The translations under genes and the position numbers were made by a program. Positions 8,483 to 17,417 of a stretch of 50,489 nt of DNA are shown here, piece by piece. This stretch comes from a virus. Location of the stretch: positions 1-50,489 of the IMG/VR virus record IMGVR_UViG_3300000101_000024; one strand, written 5' to 3'. Each line of letters starts with the position of its first letter. The stretch's first letter is position 1. Below the pieces are notes generated by a model that worked only from the letters and a program-made list of their open reading frames with translations, was not told the origin of the DNA and made no database searches.

Positions 8483-8866
8483 CTATTCGACGTATGAAGT
8501 TATAATGGCATCGTTAGGAAGGATAGATGTTACTTCATCATCATTCAACAACAACATTTTAACTCCGTTAATTACGAGCTTCTGTCCGGCATACTTGCCA
8601 TAAGTAACTCGGCTACCGACATTTGGCCAAGAGCCTTTCCAAGCCTGACCTGAGTCGCGATCTCTGTAAGCCAAATCCCCAATAGACAAAATATGACCAT
8701 GGGCTATAAGATATTGCTCGTTGTCTTGACTTATGTTTGCGAGCAGAATCCCACCTTTGGTTTTTGTTTTGGCTTCGTTAGGTTTGACTAAAACTTTCCA
8801 ACCCATTGGTTTTGGATATTCCTCTGGGCTTAATTCTTTTACTTCTTCTTCATGCTGATGAGACAT
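8483..8866 (-). CDS. GroES-like co-chaperonin
   Basis: This 127-residue protein matches the Cpn10 pattern. The N-terminal beta strand with PMGWKVLVKPNEAK (about 20-33) aligns with the 'PLHDRVIVKRKE' strand of GroES. The mobile loop follows (TKTKGGILLANISQDN, about 34-49), where GGI(V/L)L is the GroEL contact. Then come GHILSIGDLAYRD, PNVGSRVTYGKYAGQKLVI and LLLNDDEVTSIL at the end. It is somewhat longer than bacterial GroES and has an acidic, His-containing N-terminal extension. Phage co-chaperonins such as T4 gp31 replace GroES in folding the coat protein by host GroEL; its place next to scaffold and capsid genes fits that. Confidence 0.8.
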   Translation of the reverse strand: MSHQHEEEVKELSPEEYPKPMGWKVLVKPNEAKTKTKGGILLANISQDNEQYLIAHGHILSIGDLAYRDRDSGQAWKGSWPNVGSRVTYGKYAGQKLVINGVKMLLLNDDEVTSILPNDAIITSYVE

Positions 8867-9299: not shown

Positions 9300-10232
9300 T
9301 CATGGCATGACCATCCTAGACTCATCAATATACCGCTCAACAGCTGGCAATGCACCAGCCACTGGAGCAACTCCGTAAACAATTTTTAAAAGGTCTCCGA
9401 GAGTTCCCATCTTCTCAGGACCAGGACGATCATAATTACGTATTCCAACATCATTATAAACAGGAGTGTCTGGCGGCAGATCTTTAAGATTAATCTCTTC
9501 TGCGCTCGCATTTCTAAGCTCTGTTAAATATGGCTGATCTCCAAAACCTAAATTTTCAAGAGCTCTCGACCTGTGACGGCTTTCATGCGCAACCACTCGT
9601 AGAGACCCATCTTCATCGAGCTTAACTGTGATCATTGGGTTTTCGGCAACTCCTTGATATTGCCCTCTTGAATAATCTTTGTATGACTTGCCTCCGCTGG
9701 CATCAAAAATGTTTGTTCCTTTTGGAATTTCTTTGTTTTTAAAAAGCTCTTCGAGGTATTTTATCTTACCAAGACTTATTGATGCTTGCTCATCTATTAC
9801 ATCAGGATCCATTTTAGGATACATTTTTTTCAGAGCTTCAGGATTGTCTGAGTACAAAGGTGGATTGAGTAATCTGTGCGTTTTGGGAGTAACCATCGCC
9901 ATGTGGGCTTCTTGGTAATTTGCAGCATCACCATAGTAATCATTCTTTTTACTCTGCATTGCTAATGTTTGAATCGCATTAGGGTCAAAAAAATCAACAC
10001 TCCTTTGAACATCTTGCGCAGGTTGTTGTAAAAATGCATTAATCGGGTCACCCATCTCCTCAACAGCATAATCAAGCGAGTCTCGGTCTGGTCGGAAACT
10101 CTGACTCGGATCAAGATCTTCGCCAGCCTTTAACTTATTGGTTTCGAAATTTTTACTTTGCTTGGTCAAAAGATTATCTATAAACTCTACAACCTCTTCC
10201 CCAATAGCTTTTATTGCTTTTCCTGCGGCCAT
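9300..10232 (-). CDS. Probable internal virion protein with HESRHRSRAL motif
   Basis: This 310-residue protein has an amphipathic N-terminus (MAAGKAIKAIGEEVVEFIDN) shared in style with two other genes downstream. A Pro/Asp-rich middle follows. Near residues 205-225 a segment, VKLDEDGSLRVVAHESRHRSRALENLG, resembles the 'HEGRHRARAL' modules found in large phage-delivered proteins. A hydrophobic stretch near the C-terminus (LLKIVYGVAPVAGALPAVERY) could insert in a membrane. Position between head genes suggests packaging in the capsid and delivery to the host. Enzymatic activity is not established. Confidence 0.5.
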   Translation of the reverse strand: MAAGKAIKAIGEEVVEFIDNLLTKQSKNFETNKLKAGEDLDPSQSFRPDRDSLDYAVEEMGDPINAFLQQPAQDVQRSVDFFDPNAIQTLAMQSKKNDYYGDAANYQEAHMAMVTPKTHRLLNPPLYSDNPEALKKMYPKMDPDVIDEQASISLGKIKYLEELFKNKEIPKGTNIFDASGGKSYKDYSRGQYQGVAENPMITVKLDEDGSLRVVAHESRHRSRALENLGFGDQPYLTELRNASAEEINLKDLPPDTPVYNDVGIRNYDRPGPEKMGTLGDLLKIVYGVAPVAGALPAVERYIDESRMVMP

Positions 10233-10257
10233 CTCGCTACCTCATATTATTTTTCAA

Positions 10258-11253
10258 TCAGAATTTCATTCCAGCTGGCGGCAAGTCCTCCGTCAGCAGA
10301 TTATTTTTTTTCAAATACTCTTTTATCTCGCTTTTAGATAAATTGTACTCGTCTTTAAGCTGTGTTAACATGTCGTGAGCAACACCTCCTGTATTAACAT
10401 CATCAAGATCTATTTCGCCATCTAAATAATCTTTGACATCATCTGCATCATTTAAAAACATTTCTGCTGAATCCAACCCACCTCCTTCATTAATCATTTC
10501 CCCAACTTCTTCAATTTGCTCATCAGTGGCTTTTGCAACATCATTAGGCAAGTTTAAATCTAGCAAATCCTCTGGATCCAAATCTGAAATAAATGAGCGA
10601 TAATTTTCACTACCTACTTGAAAATTTATGTTTTTCTCAGCTATTTTGAAAGAGCTAAGATCAAAGTAATTTTTTGGAAGTTCTGCTGTTATTTTTTTCA
10701 CAACAGGAGCAATGTTTTCTACGACTTTTGGGCTAGGGCTCGTCGGAACATCTAAAAGTTTTAAAGCTCCTGCTCCTGGGAGTGAAGCAGCTCCTGCACC
10801 AATAGCAATTCTTTTAACCGCATCTCTTCTCCCGACATCTGTCGGCAGGTTTTTTGATTTATTTCCTAGGTTTTGTATGAATCTCTTAACAGGTGTTGTT
10901 AATGCTCTCGTCAATGGGTATGCCTCTAAAGCAGAGACTCCTGCAACAAGGGTTGGTATAATATAATCTGTAGCTTTTTCTGCTTGCTCATATCCTGTTT
11001 TAACCTCATCAGCAGCATAAATCAAACCTGCAGGAGTGAAGTCTGCAACACCCATCATATCAGCAAACCCATAACTGGGATTATTTGAGCCTGTTAAACC
11101 TTCTGCCATGTCTCGGGCAGTTTGTGGCGTAGAAGCAACGCCCATGCTCTCAAGATAATCAGCAATCACATCCGAGTGCTCTTGCCTCAAAGATGGTTCA
11201 AAAGTTTTAAGATCACCGTATTTCTCAAAATCGTCATTAGGTTTAACTGCCAT
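10258..11253 (-). CDS. Probable internal virion protein with internal twin-arginine-like segment
   Basis: This is a 331-residue protein. A predicted helical N-terminal part precedes a hydrophobic stretch at about 97-112 (YIIPTLVAGVSALEAYP). Then a twin-arginine-like element occurs at 141-147 (GRRDAVK), directly followed by a small-residue hydrophobic run (IAIGAGAASLPGAGALKLL). The C-terminal half is acidic (SDLDPEDLLDLNLP, then DDVKDYLDGEIDLDDVNTGG). The RR site is deep inside the chain, so an ordinary export signal is unlikely unless the protein is processed. Its stop overlaps nothing; its start abuts the stop of the 159-residue gene. Function unknown. Confidence 0.5.
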   Translation of the reverse strand: MAVKPNDDFEKYGDLKTFEPSLRQEHSDVIADYLESMGVASTPQTARDMAEGLTGSNNPSYGFADMMGVADFTPAGLIYAADEVKTGYEQAEKATDYIIPTLVAGVSALEAYPLTRALTTPVKRFIQNLGNKSKNLPTDVGRRDAVKRIAIGAGAASLPGAGALKLLDVPTSPSPKVVENIAPVVKKITAELPKNYFDLSSFKIAEKNINFQVGSENYRSFISDLDPEDLLDLNLPNDVAKATDEQIEEVGEMINEGGGLDSAEMFLNDADDVKDYLDGEIDLDDVNTGGVAHDMLTQLKDEYNLSKSEIKEYLKKNNLLTEDLPPAGMKF

Positions 11254-11732
11254 CAGAACTCTTTCTTTATCCTAGCCATAATGTTGTAATCATCAGTTTG
11301 TGGTTGGTAAGACCCACTTATGTTAACTCCACTCGGTAAATTAACAAAAGCATCATAACTGTTAACCATCCCACTCGGTCCATAAGTCACAGAAGCTGGC
11401 TCACCGAACTCTTGCAACCTAGGAGAGAAATTTTCTTTGCCTCGGTAGTAACTTCCGGAAACTCCTCCTCCGAAAGATGTTCCACTCGGTAGGTTCACTG
11501 AACCACCCAATCGGCCACCGCCTTGTGTTTGCCTCTGGACAACGTCTCGGGACTCTGCTCCGCCAACTCCCACATTTGCGTCTATGCTTGGTGTAAAGTC
11601 CAAAGCACCAAAGCTGTAACTTGTTGGTTCGTATTGCTGGTCTTCGTTTTGCAATTTAATGCCGAGTTGATCCTCGATTGCTTCTGCTTTCATCCCTAAA
11701 GAGAAAAGGAAATTGACAAGATTATTATTCAC
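11253..11732 (-). CDS. Glycine-rich beta protein of the head module
   Basis: This 159-residue protein has a helical start (NNNLVNFLFSLGMKAEAIEDQ) followed by a Gly/Ser-rich body with two related beta hairpins: GGSVNLPSGTSFGGGVSGSY and DAFVNLPSGVNISGSY. It ends in alternating hydrophobic residues with a terminal Phe (YNIMARIKKEF). Two-residue alternation and a C-terminal aromatic residue are features of outer-membrane beta strands, but there is no signal peptide. It overlaps the next gene by 4 bases. A membrane-conduit or virion role is a guess. Confidence 0.5.
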   Translation of the reverse strand: MNNNLVNFLFSLGMKAEAIEDQLGIKLQNEDQQYEPTSYSFGALDFTPSIDANVGVGGAESRDVVQRQTQGGGRLGGSVNLPSGTSFGGGVSGSYYRGKENFSPRLQEFGEPASVTYGPSGMVNSYDAFVNLPSGVNISGSYQPQTDDYNIMARIKKEF

Positions 11733-11920
11733 ACCTGACCTCCGGAAAGTTGTTCTGCTAAAATCTCCAAAGTTTCTTTAAATCCTTTGTCGAGTTCTTT
11801 TGCTGCCATGGCGAATTTTTTAGGACTCAAGTCCTCGGTTTTTAATCCTCTGCGCTCCAAGAAACTCTTTGCTGCGCGGATCTCTGCGTTTGCTACTTTT
11901 TTAATTGATGCTTTTGCCAT
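11729..11920 (-). CDS. Small basic helical protein
   Basis: This 63-residue protein (AKASIKKVANAEIRAAKSFL to LEILAEQLSGGQV) is helical and basic at the N-terminus, with no cysteines or membrane segment. It overlaps the Gly-rich gene by 4 bases, indicating coupled translation. The LSPKKFAMAAKELDKGF segment is well-behaved coding sequence. Function unknown; probably virion-associated because all neighbours are. Confidence 0.55.
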   Translation of the reverse strand: MAKASIKKVANAEIRAAKSFLERRGLKTEDLSPKKFAMAAKELDKGFKETLEILAEQLSGGQV

Positions 11921-11946
11921 TATAACTTGCCTAATGATAAGATTAA

Positions 11947-12573
11947 TTAATCAACCAATTGTCGTGTTAATTTGTCTAATTCTGGGTCTTCTATTAATTC
12001 TGGTTGAATTTTCAATATTTTATTTTTTAAAAGCGGAGCTTTTATTTCATCTTTCACATAGTTCGAAAGGTCATATTCATTTGTGAAAACGTCTTGTTGG
12101 AATCGAGAGCCTTGATTGTCCAAGTAGTTTTGCAGACCATTAGCGATGACAGATCCATCATCCCCAGCTTCATAAAATTCATCTAAAAATTCGTCTAAAT
12201 TTTTATATCCTGAAATATTATCAACTAAACCAGACTCTCTGATAAAATTAACATAATCAACATCATCACTAAACATTTCTCTAGTCATTTGACCGAGGGG
12301 AATAGTATCATCATTTTTGTTTGCCGTTGATGTGTCAAATTTATTGTTTATATCAGAAATAATTTCATCAAATTTACCTTCTGCGAACAGCTTCCTTAAA
12401 CTTTTTGTCGCCAAAGCTGCTGCTCCCAAAGAGACAAGTCCTCCAGCTGGAGCTGCTGTTCCTCTTTTAAGGAAATCTCTTCTCGAGACATCTACTTCAT
12501 TGTCTGAAGGAAGTGCTCCTAGCTTCTTTTTTATAAATTTTGCTGCTCCTGATATTAATTTGCCAGCCGCCAT
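11947..12573 (-). CDS. Probable internal virion protein with twin-arginine motif
   Basis: This 208-residue protein begins MAAGKLISGAAKFIKKKLGA. At residues 30-36 it has SRRDFLK, a perfect match to the twin-arginine consensus (S/T-R-R-x-F-L-K). A 19-residue small hydrophobic run follows (TAAPAGGLVSLGAAALATK). The rest is acidic and helical (SDVDYVN-type stretches). Tat signals normally lie at the N-terminus with a short basic n-region; here 29 residues precede the RR pair, within the range of long n-regions. It may be a phage protein delivered to the host and moved to or across the membrane, or the motif may serve another binding. Inference only. Confidence 0.55.
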   Translation of the reverse strand: MAAGKLISGAAKFIKKKLGALPSDNEVDVSRRDFLKRGTAAPAGGLVSLGAAALATKSLRKLFAEGKFDEIISDINNKFDTSTANKNDDTIPLGQMTREMFSDDVDYVNFIRESGLVDNISGYKNLDEFLDEFYEAGDDGSVIANGLQNYLDNQGSRFQQDVFTNEYDLSNYVKDEIKAPLLKNKILKIQPELIEDPELDKLTRQLVD

Positions 12574-12579
12574 ATTATA

Positions 12580-12837
12580 TCACCACGCTTTGCACGACCA
12601 ATACCGTGCTTTTGTTTTAGGTCCAGGAGTTTCGCAATTGTGACGTGAGCGGAAATTGCTTCTGCGTCCTGGCTGATTCTTTTTGATCCTCATGTTAGGA
12701 TCCCCAAATGTGACTCGTTTAACCCGATCACCATCCTTAACGTAAACAACAGACTTCTTTTTGCCGTAAGATGTTTCACCTTTGGCTATTCTGCGTGGCT
12801 TGTTAAGAGTTACTTTGCGTCCTTTGTACTCAGCCAT
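12580..12837 (-). CDS. Small basic Cys-containing protein of the pre-portal cluster
   Basis: This 85-residue protein has pI clearly basic. The N-terminal part forms a small beta domain (YKGRKVTLNKPRRIAKGE, then KKSVVYVKDGDRVKRVTFGD). The C-terminal part (RSRHNCETPGPKTKARYWSC) carries two Cys and an aromatic end. The C-terminal 'ARHNC-x10-YWSC' pattern is one I recall from many marine phages without assigned function; the two Cys plus His could bind zinc. It abuts the 225-residue gene. Head-packaged or DNA-binding role possible. Confidence 0.6.
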   Translation of the reverse strand: MAEYKGRKVTLNKPRRIAKGETSYGKKKSVVYVKDGDRVKRVTFGDPNMRIKKNQPGRRSNFRSRHNCETPGPKTKARYWSCKAW

Positions 12838-13514
12838 TATTTTTTAATATCATCATACAATTTTTTAAAATTTATTAGGTCCATTGTGCTGTTGGTGTGT
12901 TTTGTTTTGTAATCCCAAAATGATTTTTCCAACCCTTTTTTAGTTTCAGATATGAATTTTACAACCCTATCAGTGTCATGGTCTTTCCCAAAATCTAAAT
13001 TGTCAAGATTGGCATAAACATTTGTTTTAGGTCCATATCCTGAGTCTTCAAGAAGTTTGGCCATGTTTTTGCTGCTGATGTTAAATTTATTTTTGAGATT
13101 TTCTAGACTTTCATATATAGATGGAAAAAATTCTCCATAATTTTGGTGTTTCCCATCTGAGAAATAATGAAGGAATGCTTCTCCCATTGCTTGATCTTTT
13201 GTATCAGTCTCTGGGAGTATGTCTGTGACATCTATGCGGTTTTCGTCGTAAAAATCAGGATCCATTCTGTATTGATGTTCTTGACTCACAATATCAAGCT
13301 GATCATCAATTAATTTGAAATCAGGATCATCAAGCAGATGACCGAAATAATAATCCCCACCTTGACCAGACATTGCTTGTTTATTTGCGTCCTGAACCAT
13401 CAGTCTTCTTGACAGCATCGGGGCATCGGAAAGCCTCGCGGCAGTGTCAACCTTTGGGACTACATTATCAACAAGTTTGCTGAGGACACCTTTTACTATT
13501 TTAGCTCCTGCCAT
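12837..13514 (-). CDS. Probable internal virion protein, MA-x-x-K N-terminus
   Basis: This 225-residue acidic protein opens with MAGAKIVKGVLSKLVDNVVP, an amphipathic helix similar to those of the 310- and 208-residue proteins. The rest (EFFPSIYESLENLKNKFNIS and other charged helices) shows no motif. Its stop overlaps the start of the small basic gene by one base, and its own start overlaps the stop of the 57-residue gene as TAATG. Shared N-terminus suggests a common virion-targeting tag. Function unknown. Confidence 0.55.
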   Translation of the reverse strand: MAGAKIVKGVLSKLVDNVVPKVDTAARLSDAPMLSRRLMVQDANKQAMSGQGGDYYFGHLLDDPDFKLIDDQLDIVSQEHQYRMDPDFYDENRIDVTDILPETDTKDQAMGEAFLHYFSDGKHQNYGEFFPSIYESLENLKNKFNISSKNMAKLLEDSGYGPKTNVYANLDNLDFGKDHDTDRVVKFISETKKGLEKSFWDYKTKHTNSTMDLINFKKLYDDIKK

Positions 13515-14593: not shown

Positions 14594-14980
14594 TTATCTT
14601 CCTCTCGATTTCATCATAGCATCCAGCTCTGGGTTTGAAATTTGACCTTGTGCTGGCGGCATTGGTTGGTTGATTTGTCTTGATCTCATCATAGCTTCTA
14701 GTTCTGGGTTTGAAATTTGTCCTTGTCCTCGGAGATTGGCCATGTAATTTTGCATCGCATCTTGAGAACCAGAATCTTTCAGCCCTGATTTTATCTCTTC
14801 AACTTTGCGCATTAAATACTCCATCATGCTTTGCTCATCAGTACCCATCGGTGCGGACTGTGCCATCATCCCTAATTCCTGAGAACCAATTCCTCCCAGT
14901 GCTCCGCTGAACTCTGAAGGATTGACAGGTTGCTGGAGCGCAGTAACTCGCGCCATCATCTCATCAATTGTTTCTGCCAT
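14594..14980 (-). CDS. Repeat-containing protein upstream of the pre-portal cluster
   Basis: This 128-residue, Met/Gln-rich protein contains two near-identical segments of the form GQISNPELEAMMRSR (75-bp repeat, 14611-14650 and 14686-14725). A helical middle (EQSMMEYLMRKVEEIKSGLK) precedes them. Such duplicated 'NPELxAMMxSR' elements look like short binding peptides. It overlaps the portal gene end by 17 bases. Function unknown; probably a head or assembly protein. Confidence 0.5.
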   Translation of the reverse strand: MAETIDEMMARVTALQQPVNPSEFSGALGGIGSQELGMMAQSAPMGTDEQSMMEYLMRKVEEIKSGLKDSGSQDAMQNYMANLRGQGQISNPELEAMMRSRQINQPMPPAQGQISNPELDAMMKSRGR

Positions 14981-17417
14981 TTATAATCTCCTGTTGAATT
15001 TTTATTGCGTTTTTCTCTCGCTCAATCTGCAAATCAGCCTCCAGTTTAGCAATTTTTGCTTGGAGATCTGCTTCGAGTTTAACTTGTTGAATTTGAATGT
15101 TCTGTGCAGCTTTGGCTTGGTCAATCTGCATATCAGACTGAGCTTTGGCTTGGTCGACTTGAATTTCAGCCTGTGTTTTGGCTTGAAGTGCTTGTGCCTC
15201 TAATTCTGCCAACTGCTTGGCATAGTCCAAAGGATTCTGTTGACCTTGCTGTTGACCTTGTCTTAATGACTGAATTGCTTGCATCTGAGGTGCTTGCTGA
15301 ACGACTTGTGCAGCTCGTTGGCTGATTATCATGTCTGCCCTCGGATCAATATCCTCAAATTTAAAGTCTTTGTCTCTTAAATCAGGAACATCTGGTAGCG
15401 GAACAGCGATGCTGGATTGCATTCGGTTTCTGTAAAGCAACGCAACGTGCTCGGCAATGTGTGCGATCAAAACTGGCTGAAGTGCTTTTGCTCCTGGATT
15501 TCCTGCCAGACTCGGATCTTGTAAAAACTGCATGTGAACAGCGATGTGCGCGTCATGATCTTGCTCAGGAAAAGCACGGATTGGTTTGCCGTACATGACT
15601 GACATATTCTCATCAATCGGATCCAACCTAGGAGCTGTTTCTGGCTTTTTCAAAATCTCATCAATCCCAGGAATCCGGATCGCTTCGTACATACGTTTGT
15701 AAGCTTCGTACATATCATGCAACTGAGGTGCGGATTGTGCCATTTGCAGAATCGCTTGTGCTTGTGCAATTCTTTGTGCAGTGCTGAAAATGTTCGGGTC
15801 GCTGACTGGGACAATATCTATGCGTTCATTAAAGTCAGCAGCATAAACCGTTTCCGAAGCACCTGCGACTGCGAACTGAAACGAATCTGGCAAGTAAAGT
15901 TCGTTCAGCTTTGCGAGCATCTTGAACTCTTGACCTTGCGAGTAATGAAGTCGTTTGTGGATTGCGGAGAATGATTTTGATCCCTGCTCAATCAGAGCAA
16001 CCGTTGAACCGACTGGTGCGTTCGGATTAACATCACCAACATTTAAATCTGCAGTGCTTGCAAACCGGCGACCAGCATCAACAATAAATCCGAGCAAATT
16101 AAATAAAGCACTGGATGGTTCTTTAAATGGGAGAGGCATGATTGCTTTGTTAACATCATCAACTGTCGAGTCCAGATCAACAAACTCTCCAGGATTTATG
16201 TCAATCTCACCACCACTCACTCTGCCTTTTAATTTAAAGCCACCTTGCATGTTTGAGAATGCAGCTGAATCCAAAAGTGCTCTCAGAGCTCCTGTTGCAG
16301 CCTTGCCCAAACCACCAATCAGGTGATAAAGTCCAAAGCCATAAAACCCAACTCCTGGCAAGAACTTATAACTCACAAACCAGTTCCTGCGGTCTTTGTC
16401 CTCGTCATCTTCGTACCAGTTTCTGCGTACAGAAACAACTTTCTGAGAGTCGTAGTCGATTGTGATAACATAAGGAAATGCGACAACATCACTCTCGTCG
16501 TCCTCGTCATCATCTTCTGAGATCCCATCAATACCAGAGAATGTTTCATAAACGTGCATCTCAAGCAATGTCATCACTTCATCTTGGGAATCGTCTTGGT
16601 AAGGATTAACACCTTCAATGTCTTCAGTTGTGGAGCCTGAGGGATCAACATCACCACCTGAATATTCAATAGACTTATACCAACCCGACTCAACGTATTT
16701 GTTGAAGTCGTTGCGCGGCATTCTTATCACCTGTGAATAACGTGGCGAAGTGTAAAGGTCTTTGCTCTCAGGAGCAACAACAAAATCTTCTGCGTTAACA
16801 AATTGAGAACATTGGCGATCGAGATTCGGATCCCACCAAACTTTCTTAAATGTCTGACCAACAAGTGGTAGCTGGAACAACATTTGATCGAGCTCAGGGA
16901 AATACTCCGGCATCTGCTGAGTGATCTGATAATTCATGAACTCACGAACTCTACGAGCTTGCTCTTCAGTTTCTTCGTTCGGTTCACCGATAATTGTCGT
17001 TTTAACAGGACCACCAGAAGGATACAACTCGGTTATGGCTCTTGCGTTAAACTGCGTTGCAGCTTCTGCGATCATAGGATGAACAACTGTGCTTAATCCT
17101 CTGCTTGCTCTTTCCTCTTCTGATTCTTCAAGACCACCGTCTGGGTCTAAAGTTTTAAGACCCTGTTTGTATCTTTGCTCCCACTGTGAGCGAGCAGACT
17201 TGTCTGATTCGTAATAACCAACAAGTTCTGAGGCTTTGCGGTCAAGTTGACGTTGGTCAATAACCTCTGCCAAGTTTTGATCAAAAACAGTTTGCTCTTC
17301 TGGAGTCTCGTCCAAAGCAGGATCTCCGATAAGAACATCACCGTCTGGTAAATTTTCAATTTGAAGCTCGTCTGGTGGTGCACCTTCTGCGAAGGGAATT
17401 ACTTTTTCTTCAGCCAT
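14964..17417 (-). CDS. Portal protein
   Basis: This 817-residue protein has the architecture of podovirus portals: acidic N-terminus, then the clip/stem/wing region with GLSTVVHPMIAEAATQFNAR (about 103-122), FVVAPESKDLYTSPRYSQ and GFYGFGLYHLIGGLGKAATG. The C-terminal ~120 residues are a long Gln/Ala-rich coiled coil with repeated KAQ/DQAK units (AEIQVDQAKAQSDMQIDQAK). The size is close to P22-type portals. It follows the terminase large subunit by an overlapping start (8 bases). It forms the dodecameric packaging and ejection channel. Confident from length, order and motifs. Confidence 0.85.
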   Translation of the reverse strand: MAEEKVIPFAEGAPPDELQIENLPDGDVLIGDPALDETPEEQTVFDQNLAEVIDQRQLDRKASELVGYYESDKSARSQWEQRYKQGLKTLDPDGGLEESEEERASRGLSTVVHPMIAEAATQFNARAITELYPSGGPVKTTIIGEPNEETEEQARRVREFMNYQITQQMPEYFPELDQMLFQLPLVGQTFKKVWWDPNLDRQCSQFVNAEDFVVAPESKDLYTSPRYSQVIRMPRNDFNKYVESGWYKSIEYSGGDVDPSGSTTEDIEGVNPYQDDSQDEVMTLLEMHVYETFSGIDGISEDDDEDDESDVVAFPYVITIDYDSQKVVSVRRNWYEDDEDKDRRNWFVSYKFLPGVGFYGFGLYHLIGGLGKAATGALRALLDSAAFSNMQGGFKLKGRVSGGEIDINPGEFVDLDSTVDDVNKAIMPLPFKEPSSALFNLLGFIVDAGRRFASTADLNVGDVNPNAPVGSTVALIEQGSKSFSAIHKRLHYSQGQEFKMLAKLNELYLPDSFQFAVAGASETVYAADFNERIDIVPVSDPNIFSTAQRIAQAQAILQMAQSAPQLHDMYEAYKRMYEAIRIPGIDEILKKPETAPRLDPIDENMSVMYGKPIRAFPEQDHDAHIAVHMQFLQDPSLAGNPGAKALQPVLIAHIAEHVALLYRNRMQSSIAVPLPDVPDLRDKDFKFEDIDPRADMIISQRAAQVVQQAPQMQAIQSLRQGQQQGQQNPLDYAKQLAELEAQALQAKTQAEIQVDQAKAQSDMQIDQAKAAQNIQIQQVKLEADLQAKIAKLEADLQIEREKNAIKIQQEIINGRNN

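What the first reader, a model, noticed from the sequence alone, without database searches (positions are those of the whole stretch)
9300..13514. Block of probable internal head proteins with a shared MA-x-x-K N-terminus and twin-arginine-like segments
Three proteins (310, 208 and 225 residues) begin MAAGKAIKAI, MAAGKLISGA and MAGAKIVKGV: a small-residue, Lys, amphipathic start that may be a common packaging or targeting tag. The 208-residue protein also has SRRDFLK (30-36), a perfect Tat consensus, followed by a small hydrophobic run. The 331-residue protein has GRRDAVK (141-147) followed by a similar run. Phages rarely encode Tat substrates. One possibility is that these are ejected into the host and moved to the inner membrane or periplasm via Tat; another is that the motif has been reused for assembly.
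Basis: partly seen in the sequence, partly recalled or inferred. Interest (0 to 1): 0.7.

Follow-up and report, generated by a model that had tools for sequence, protein, structure and literature searches.

The report
Phage cargo proteins with export-signal mimic
A marine bacteriophage carries, between its portal and capsid genes, a set of variable proteins that share short targeting segments, one of which closely resembles the bacterial twin-arginine export signal but usually sits in the middle of the protein, suggesting that these viruses mimic a host export address to place their own cargo at the host membrane.

Summary
The window is a CRP-901-type marine phage; the block is the variable cassette between portal and GroES/scaffold/capsid genes. 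Residues 141-147 of the 331-residue protein and 30-36 of the 208-residue protein belong to one conserved module of about 40 residues, D-x-S-R-R-x-F-[LVM]-K, then 11-22 uncharged, weakly hydrophobic residues, often ending GALSxLPxGK. It is joined to unrelated C-terminal domains in 20 non-redundant sequences (18 RR, 2 KR, second Arg 20/20). NCBI's Tat-signal model scores the 208-residue protein above its curated cut-off. A KR form is fixed in a pelagiphage protein family next to a related portal. RR is kept in the 331 family wherever the C-domain is present, apart from one KR, but the only homologue of the 208-residue protein has KR. The proposed MA-x-x-K tag is weak; a better shared tag is F[LI]xxLxxK, near protein ends in unrelated cassette proteins (19/89 versus 1/71 control clusters). 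Presence in virions is not shown; relatives' cassettes encode ADP-ribosyltransferases of the polyvalent class. Best reading: an internal Tat-type signal that docks cargo at the inner membrane. A packaging role is the main rival.

The parts
10258..11253 (-). 331-aa protein: N-terminal 'DFTP' hairpin domain (res. ~20-130), FIQNLGNK tag (125-132), RR module (~135-180), acidic variable C-domain (~190-331)
   Evidence: AF2 helical N-domain only, rest low confidence
10714..10852 (-). RR module of the 331-aa protein (about res. 134-180): KNLPTDVGRRDAVKRIAIGAGAASLPGAGALKLL...
   Evidence: module HMM E 8e-10; member of the seed set
11947..12573 (-). 208-aa protein: amphipathic N-terminus, RR module, acidic C-domain
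   Evidence: one 57% homologue (L003/L002) with KR
12379..12507 (-). RR module of the 208-aa protein (res. 23-65), SDNEVDVSRRDFLKRGTAAPAGGLVSLGAAALATKSLRKLFAE
   Evidence: module HMM E 6e-12, in seed set; TIGR01409 19.3 bits vs cut-off 16.7
9300..10232 (-). 310-aa protein: N-terminal helix VVEFIDNLLTK, HESRHRSRAL motif domain, hydrophobic C-terminal tail LLKIVYGVAPVAGALP
   Evidence: cluster of 22 in cassettes
11253..11732 (-). 159-aa protein with the F[LI]xxLxxK tag at its N-terminus (NFLFSLGMK, PSSM 16.9)
12837..13514 (-). 225-aa protein, MAGAKIVKGV start; no relative in the loci then held
11729..11920 (-). 63-aa conserved cassette protein with a tag-like site AKSFLERRGLKT (PSSM 9.2)
12580..12837 (-). 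85-aa HVA1-type protein, cassette marker conserved in relatives
14964..17417 (-). portal protein, upstream border of the cassette
   Evidence: PHROG 1216; 73-74% identical to CRP-901/902
8483..8866 (-). GroES-like co-chaperonin, downstream border of the cassette
   Evidence: Pfam Cpn10

Best explanation
The block is a variable cargo cassette of a CRP-901-type phage. Its 331- and 208-residue proteins carry a genuine Tat-type signal segment placed internally or after a long N-terminal leader, which joins an N-terminal anchoring part (a weakly hydrophobic 'DFTP' hairpin plus the FLxxLxxK tag, or an amphipathic helix) to an exchangeable acidic C-terminal domain. Proposed action: once the protein is in the host cytoplasm (most likely ejected with the DNA, possibly made late), the S-R-R-x-F-L-K segment and its weakly hydrophobic stretch dock at the inner membrane through the host TatBC receptor, and the C-domain is moved to or anchored at the membrane/periplasmic side, as with the internal Tat signal of the Streptomyces Rieske protein. 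Shown here: the module, its residue-specific conservation, its modularity, and its occurrence within one head-gene lineage. Inferred: virion location, Tat dependence, and the fate of the C-domain.
For: Twenty non-redundant modules have S at -1 in 15/20, R or K then R with the second R in 20/20, F at +3 in 13/20, L/V/M/I at +4 in 18/20 and K at +5 in 11/20, then 11-22 uncharged residues of GRAVY 0.8-2.1. This is the canonical S-R-R-x-F-L-K with a weakly hydrophobic h-region described in PMC6708511. Lys is twice as common as Arg in the carriers, so 20/20 Arg at the second position is not a generic basic flank (P about 3e-10 if interchangeable, ignoring relatedness); KR is tolerated and RK is not in thylakoid Tat tests, the pattern seen. 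NCBIfam TIGR01409 scores above its curated cut-off for the window's 208-aa protein (19.3 vs 16.7) and a relative of the 331-aa protein (22.1) and is the commonest model in the family, 8 of 21 members at E<=1. The module is shared between proteins whose C-domains are otherwise unalignable (33-37 residues aligned, E down to about 1e-8) and occurs on separate genes: L257 has the N-domain and the RR+C-domain as two adjacent genes, and the 208-aa protein and one L019 protein lack the N-domain. Precedent for internal Tat signals: the Streptomyces Rieske protein (PMC13186574).
Against: RR lies at residue 120-253 in most carriers and beyond 900 in some pelagiphage proteins, far from the N-terminus. 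KR, known from only one native Tat substrate, is the rule in the pelagiphage family, whose uncharged stretch is only about 12 residues. The part after the h-region (GALSxLPxGK) is conserved beyond what Tat needs and there is no regular AxA site. In the 331 family the module is confined to one head-gene lineage although CRP-3, of the other lineage, also infects a Rhodobacteraceae host. No virion or export data exist.
Confidence: 0.4

Rival explanations
1. The RR module, like the FLxxLxxK tag, is an assembly element: a short helix recognised by the phage's own portal, scaffold or capsid protein that loads the cargo into the prohead. The Tat resemblance is incidental or inherited from a captured signal.
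For: Within the 331 family the FLxxLxxK tag is in 28 of 31 members with CRP-901-type head genes and in 0 of 11 with CRP-3-type heads (p about 9e-8, relatedness not corrected), and the RR module is likewise absent from the CRP-3-type members; the KR form sits beside related portal or TerL genes in 47 pelagiphage loci. The specific GALSxLPxGK half suggests a partner protein. Tags lie near protein ends (15/19 vs 28% expected).
Against: The RR module is absent from many cassette proteins and from short N-domain-only versions that keep the tag, so it is not the general packaging signal; the residue pattern matches Tat at every position.
Confidence: 0.3
2. The segment is a Tat-independent membrane-active helix: ejected cargo inserts the basic-flanked hydrophobic helix into the inner membrane directly, together with the DFTP hairpin and the hydrophobic C-terminal tails of other cassette proteins.
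For: Similar x-P-x-A-G-A-L-S-x-L hydrophobic stretches occur in the N-domain and at the C-termini of other cassette proteins; best 19-residue windows average 1.2-1.4 on the Kyte-Doolittle scale.
Against: A plain basic flank would allow Lys at the second position; none of 20 has it.
Confidence: 0.2
3. Chance resemblance: Arg pairs before small-residue runs in Ala/Gly-rich proteins.
For: Individual matches are short; a generic RR-x-phi-phi regular expression gives many chance hits (27 vs 13.8 in shuffles).
Against: The module profile finds 28 ORFs at E<1e-3 in forward and none in reversed sequences, including carriers not in the seed; RR is kept across about 30% identity.
Confidence: 0.03
4. An internal translation start just before RR yields a second product with an ordinary N-terminal Tat signal.
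For: The position would then be normal.
Against: No conserved start codon or Shine-Dalgarno site precedes the RR in 19 relatives; the window's own gene has no ATG/GTG/TTG in the 16 codons before it.
Confidence: 0.02

Closest known systems
Tat (twin-arginine) signal peptides; TIGR01409 / PF10518
   Same: S-R-R-x-F-L-K consensus, weakly hydrophobic uncharged stretch, basic residue after it, second Arg invariant, occasional KR
   Different: internal rather than N-terminal in most carriers, no regular AxA cleavage site, conserved GALSxLPxGK half, carried by phage proteins, KR the rule in pelagiphages
Internal Tat signal of the Streptomyces Rieske protein (PMC13186574)
   Same: hydrophobic N-terminal part, internal Tat signal, C-terminal domain after it
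   Different: N-part here is only weakly hydrophobic; C-domains vary and match no redox family; Tat use untested
Polyvalent proteins of phages (Iyer et al. 2017, PMC5512222)
   Same: cassette position beside portal/terminase genes; relatives' cassettes hold ART-PolyVal (PF18760) proteins; the DFTP N-domain also occurs in a 1292-aa CRP-3 protein with a cell-wall hydrolase domain
   Different: the window's own carriers are small and match no known polyvalent domain; that paper's main text does not mention twin-arginine
T4 capsid targeting sequence on internal head proteins (Mullaney and Black 1996, cited in PMC10052503)
   Same: a short shared tag on otherwise unrelated cargo proteins is what the FLxxLxxK motif would be
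   Different: motif, phage lineage and position differ (from general knowledge); packaging is not shown; no prohead protease site identified here

Membership tests
Tat signal peptide | S/T-R-R-x-F-L-K type motif with near-invariant RR | tested here: met
   18 RR, 2 KR of 20; F 13/20; TIGR01409 above cut-off for 2 of 10 proteins scanned. KR is the rule in the pelagiphage family
Tat signal peptide | weakly hydrophobic uncharged h-region of about 13 residues or more | tested here: met
   11-22 residues (3 of 20 have 11-12), GRAVY 0.8-2.1 in CRP-901-type carriers; about 12 in pelagiphages
Tat signal peptide | position near the N-terminus | tested here: not met
   residue 25-47 in the 208-aa protein, its homologue, one L019 protein and one L257 protein; 120-253 in nearly all others; beyond 900 in some pelagiphage proteins. 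Internal Tat signals are known
Tat signal peptide | AxA signal peptidase site | tested here: inconclusive
   ALA / VLA at the h-region end in the 208-aa protein and its homologue; not regular in the 331 family
Tat signal peptide | TatABC-dependent export | not testable with these tools
   needs a reporter assay
Packaged phage cargo / polyvalent protein | gene among head/packaging genes | tested here: met
   between portal and GroES/scaffold/capsid
Packaged phage cargo / polyvalent protein | multiple known effector domains in one protein | tested here: not met
   no Pfam or PHROG domain in the 331- and 208-aa proteins; only in relatives' cassettes
Packaged phage cargo / polyvalent protein | presence in the virion and ejection | not testable with these tools
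   no mass-spectrometry data found in the papers searched
CRP-901-type phage genus (PMC10149686) | homologous capsid, portal and TerL with the same gene order | tested here: met
   portal 73-74% identity to CRP-901/902; capsid 85%; order as in L005/L006. Replication genes were not compared

The most novel reading that the evidence does not exclude
An abundant marine phage lineage (CRP-901-type and HTVC023P-type pelagiphages) uses internal Tat-signal mimics on exchangeable virion cargo, so that proteins ejected with the genome are re-routed by the host's own folded-protein export machine to the inner membrane or periplasm.
Probability: 0.2. Interest if true: 0.85.

Novelty: new variant of a known kind. 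Interest (0 to 1): 0.55.

Why it matters
[quoted passage not shown] A short module that is conserved while the domains after it change points to delivery as the conserved function, and it gives a directly testable handle: whether a phage uses the host Tat system to place its proteins, or whether a Tat-like helix has been reused as a packaging tag. The FLxxLxxK tag offers a way to predict cargo proteins in uncultured marine phages.

Tried and rejected
Internal translation start before RR: no conserved start or SD. MA-x-x-K as the tag: weak. A generic RR plus hydrophobic regular expression is too noisy alone. DNA pattern for RRxFLKxGAG with AGR codons: one hit in IMG/VR, not informative. Search of bacterial/archaeal genomes with the close 331-family alignment: no relative. 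tblastn of a hand-written consensus of the module and of the 310-aa protein in annotated phages: none. AlphaFold2: 208-aa protein mean pLDDT 40, 331-aa 55, helical N-domain only. Foldseek gave only A0A646QVY5, a 1292-residue protein (E 9e-4; same length as CRP-3 gp36). PDB sequence search: mainly designed helical proteins, not informative. Profile-profile comparison of pelagiphage and CRP-901 modules (prob 92%) is not relied on because one of 30 column-shuffled controls scored higher. GAL/GALP tripeptide enrichment was seen but not developed.
Full report
Setting. The window is a 50.5-kb virus record whose portal is 73-74% identical to Roseobacter phages CRP-901/902 and about 40% to pelagiphages HTVC023P/HTVC027P, with the same order TerL-portal-variable block-GroES-scaffold-like-capsid. 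It is therefore a CRP-901-type phage (PMC10149686). The finding lies in the variable block between portal (14964-17417, minus) and GroES (8483-8866, minus).

Observation. Two RR-x-hydrophobic-hydrophobic-[KRQ] sites followed by a weakly hydrophobic acid-free run occur in the window's 69 non-overlapping ORFs; 0.05 are expected from shuffles.

The 331-residue protein family. Neighbour- and domain-based searches of IMG/VR gave 52 entries with a homologous N-domain, a few of them re-fetched copies. Members with an acidic C-domain in phages with CRP-901-type heads carry, between the two parts, [SPGN][RK]R plus a hydrophobic stretch, e.g. PRRTFVQGAVATPVAGALSKLPLGK, SRREFVKKAGGSALAAGALSTLPLTK, SRRKFLKDTATVGALGAIS. 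Counting three further members found with the module profile, two of them (L295, L296) identical at the module and counted once, 20 of 21 have RR and one has KR. Short homologues stop at or soon after the end of the N-domain and lack it; L004 stops just after GRRAANKKR. In L257 the N-domain and the RR+C-domain are adjacent separate genes. The module thus belongs with the C-domain and is movable.

The 208-residue protein. Its only homologue found (57% identity over its whole length, in L002/L003) has SKRNFIKKGAAAP. It is the same module with the N-domain replaced by an amphipathic leader; L019 has a similar protein with GRRGFLTGAVAAPIVGAISQIP.

Module statistics. Among 20 modules less than 80% identical: D at -3 in 14, S at -1 in 15, R/K at 0 (18/2), R at +1 in 20, F at +3 in 13, L/V/M/I at +4 in 18, K at +5 in 11, then 11-22 uncharged residues of GRAVY 0.8-2.1. 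Carriers have twice as much Lys as Arg. A profile of the module recovers 28 ORFs at E<1e-3 and none in reversed sequences; it includes its seeds by construction, but L257, L294, L295/L296 and L014 are new. Between several proteins with unrelated C-domains only the 33-37 module residues align. TIGR01409 passes its curated cut-off for the window's 208-aa protein and for L286, and is the commonest NCBIfam model in the family; PF10518 stays below its cut-off for the 208-aa protein and reaches only E 0.09 in the family.

Pelagiphages. HTVC027P gp42, between TerL and portal, contains DDPSKRKFIKLGAGLMSLPIIGKYLKF with the Ser at residue 735. Its relatives from 47 loci, 26 distinct sequences printed with the reference included, keep [SK]KRK[FT][MI]K, with one DRRKFMK and one cut off by the contig end, and every locus holds a homologue of the window's portal or TerL. 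So the motif spans the Roseobacter and SAR11 branches of one head lineage, with KR as the rule in the latter.

A second shared motif. [FW][LIVF]xx[LI]xxK ends the N-domain of the 331 family. A matrix built only from that family finds it in 19 of 89 other cassette protein clusters against 1 of 71 control clusters (p=7e-5), mostly within 40 residues of the N-terminus or 15 of the C-terminus. In the window it marks the 159-aa and 63-aa proteins; the 208- and 225-aa proteins score below the threshold, and the window's 310-aa protein scores only 0.6 although the median member of its cluster scores 12. In the 331 family the tag is in 28 of 31 members with CRP-901-type heads and 0 of 11 with CRP-3-type heads; L177, one of the three exceptions, is an artefact of the search interval. 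(A first Fisher test used 13 CRP-3-type members; 11 is the correct count.)

Cargo. No direct virion evidence exists. Relatives' cassettes contain ART-PolyVal proteins (L093 above Pfam's cut-off, L101 just below), and the 331 N-domain occurs in CRP-3 gp36 with a cell-wall hydrolase domain. These are the classes that Iyer et al. infer to be packaged and injected (PMC5512222).

Mechanism. In favour of Tat: every position of the consensus, the second-Arg rule with KR tolerated (PMC6708511), weak hydrophobicity, and the precedent of an internal Tat signal after membrane segments in the Streptomyces Rieske protein (PMC13186574). Against: internal position, KR as the rule and a short stretch in pelagiphages, the extra conserved GALSxLPxGK half, no regular AxA site, and restriction to one head lineage, which a packaging role would explain. 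I commit to an internal Tat-type membrane-docking signal at 0.4, packaging 0.3, Tat-independent membrane helix 0.2. The shuffle and Fisher p-values do not correct for relatedness.

Novelty. I found no description of such a module in the literature held, which is a partial library. It is a variant of a known signal type in an unusual place and carrier.

Noticed in passing
window 9300-10232 (-): 310-aa protein family (cluster of 22 in cassettes) has a HE[SG]RHRSRAL.xLG motif reminiscent (from memory, untested) of ParB/Srx-type boxes, and a hydrophobic C-terminal tail ...GVAPVAGALP.
   Followed up: partly
window 11253-11732 (-): 159-aa protein looks beta-rich and ends ...YNIMARIKKEF, like an outer-membrane beta-barrel C-terminal strand; in L003 (6194-6586) the same N-terminal tag (MN.DL.NFL.SLG.K) precedes a different C-terminus.
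   Followed up: no
window 9300-13514 (-): The 310-, 331-, 159-, 208- and 225-residue proteins contain no cysteine at all.
   Followed up: no
cassette proteins of L011, L021, L101, L014, L190, L257: Several unrelated cassette proteins end in a Gly/Ala-rich hydrophobic stretch of the type P-x-A-G-A-L-S-x-L followed by acidic residues, close to the second half of the RR module.
   Followed up: partly
cassette proteins of many loci: GAL / GALP tripeptides are enriched in cassette families over controls (GALP 19 vs 1), in several just after an amphipathic N-terminal helix; could mark a processing site or a docking motif.
   Followed up: partly
L004 3442-3891: A 92%-identical relative of the 331-aa protein has lost the whole C-domain, ending right after GRRAANKKR and a few bases before the next gene.
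   Followed up: yes
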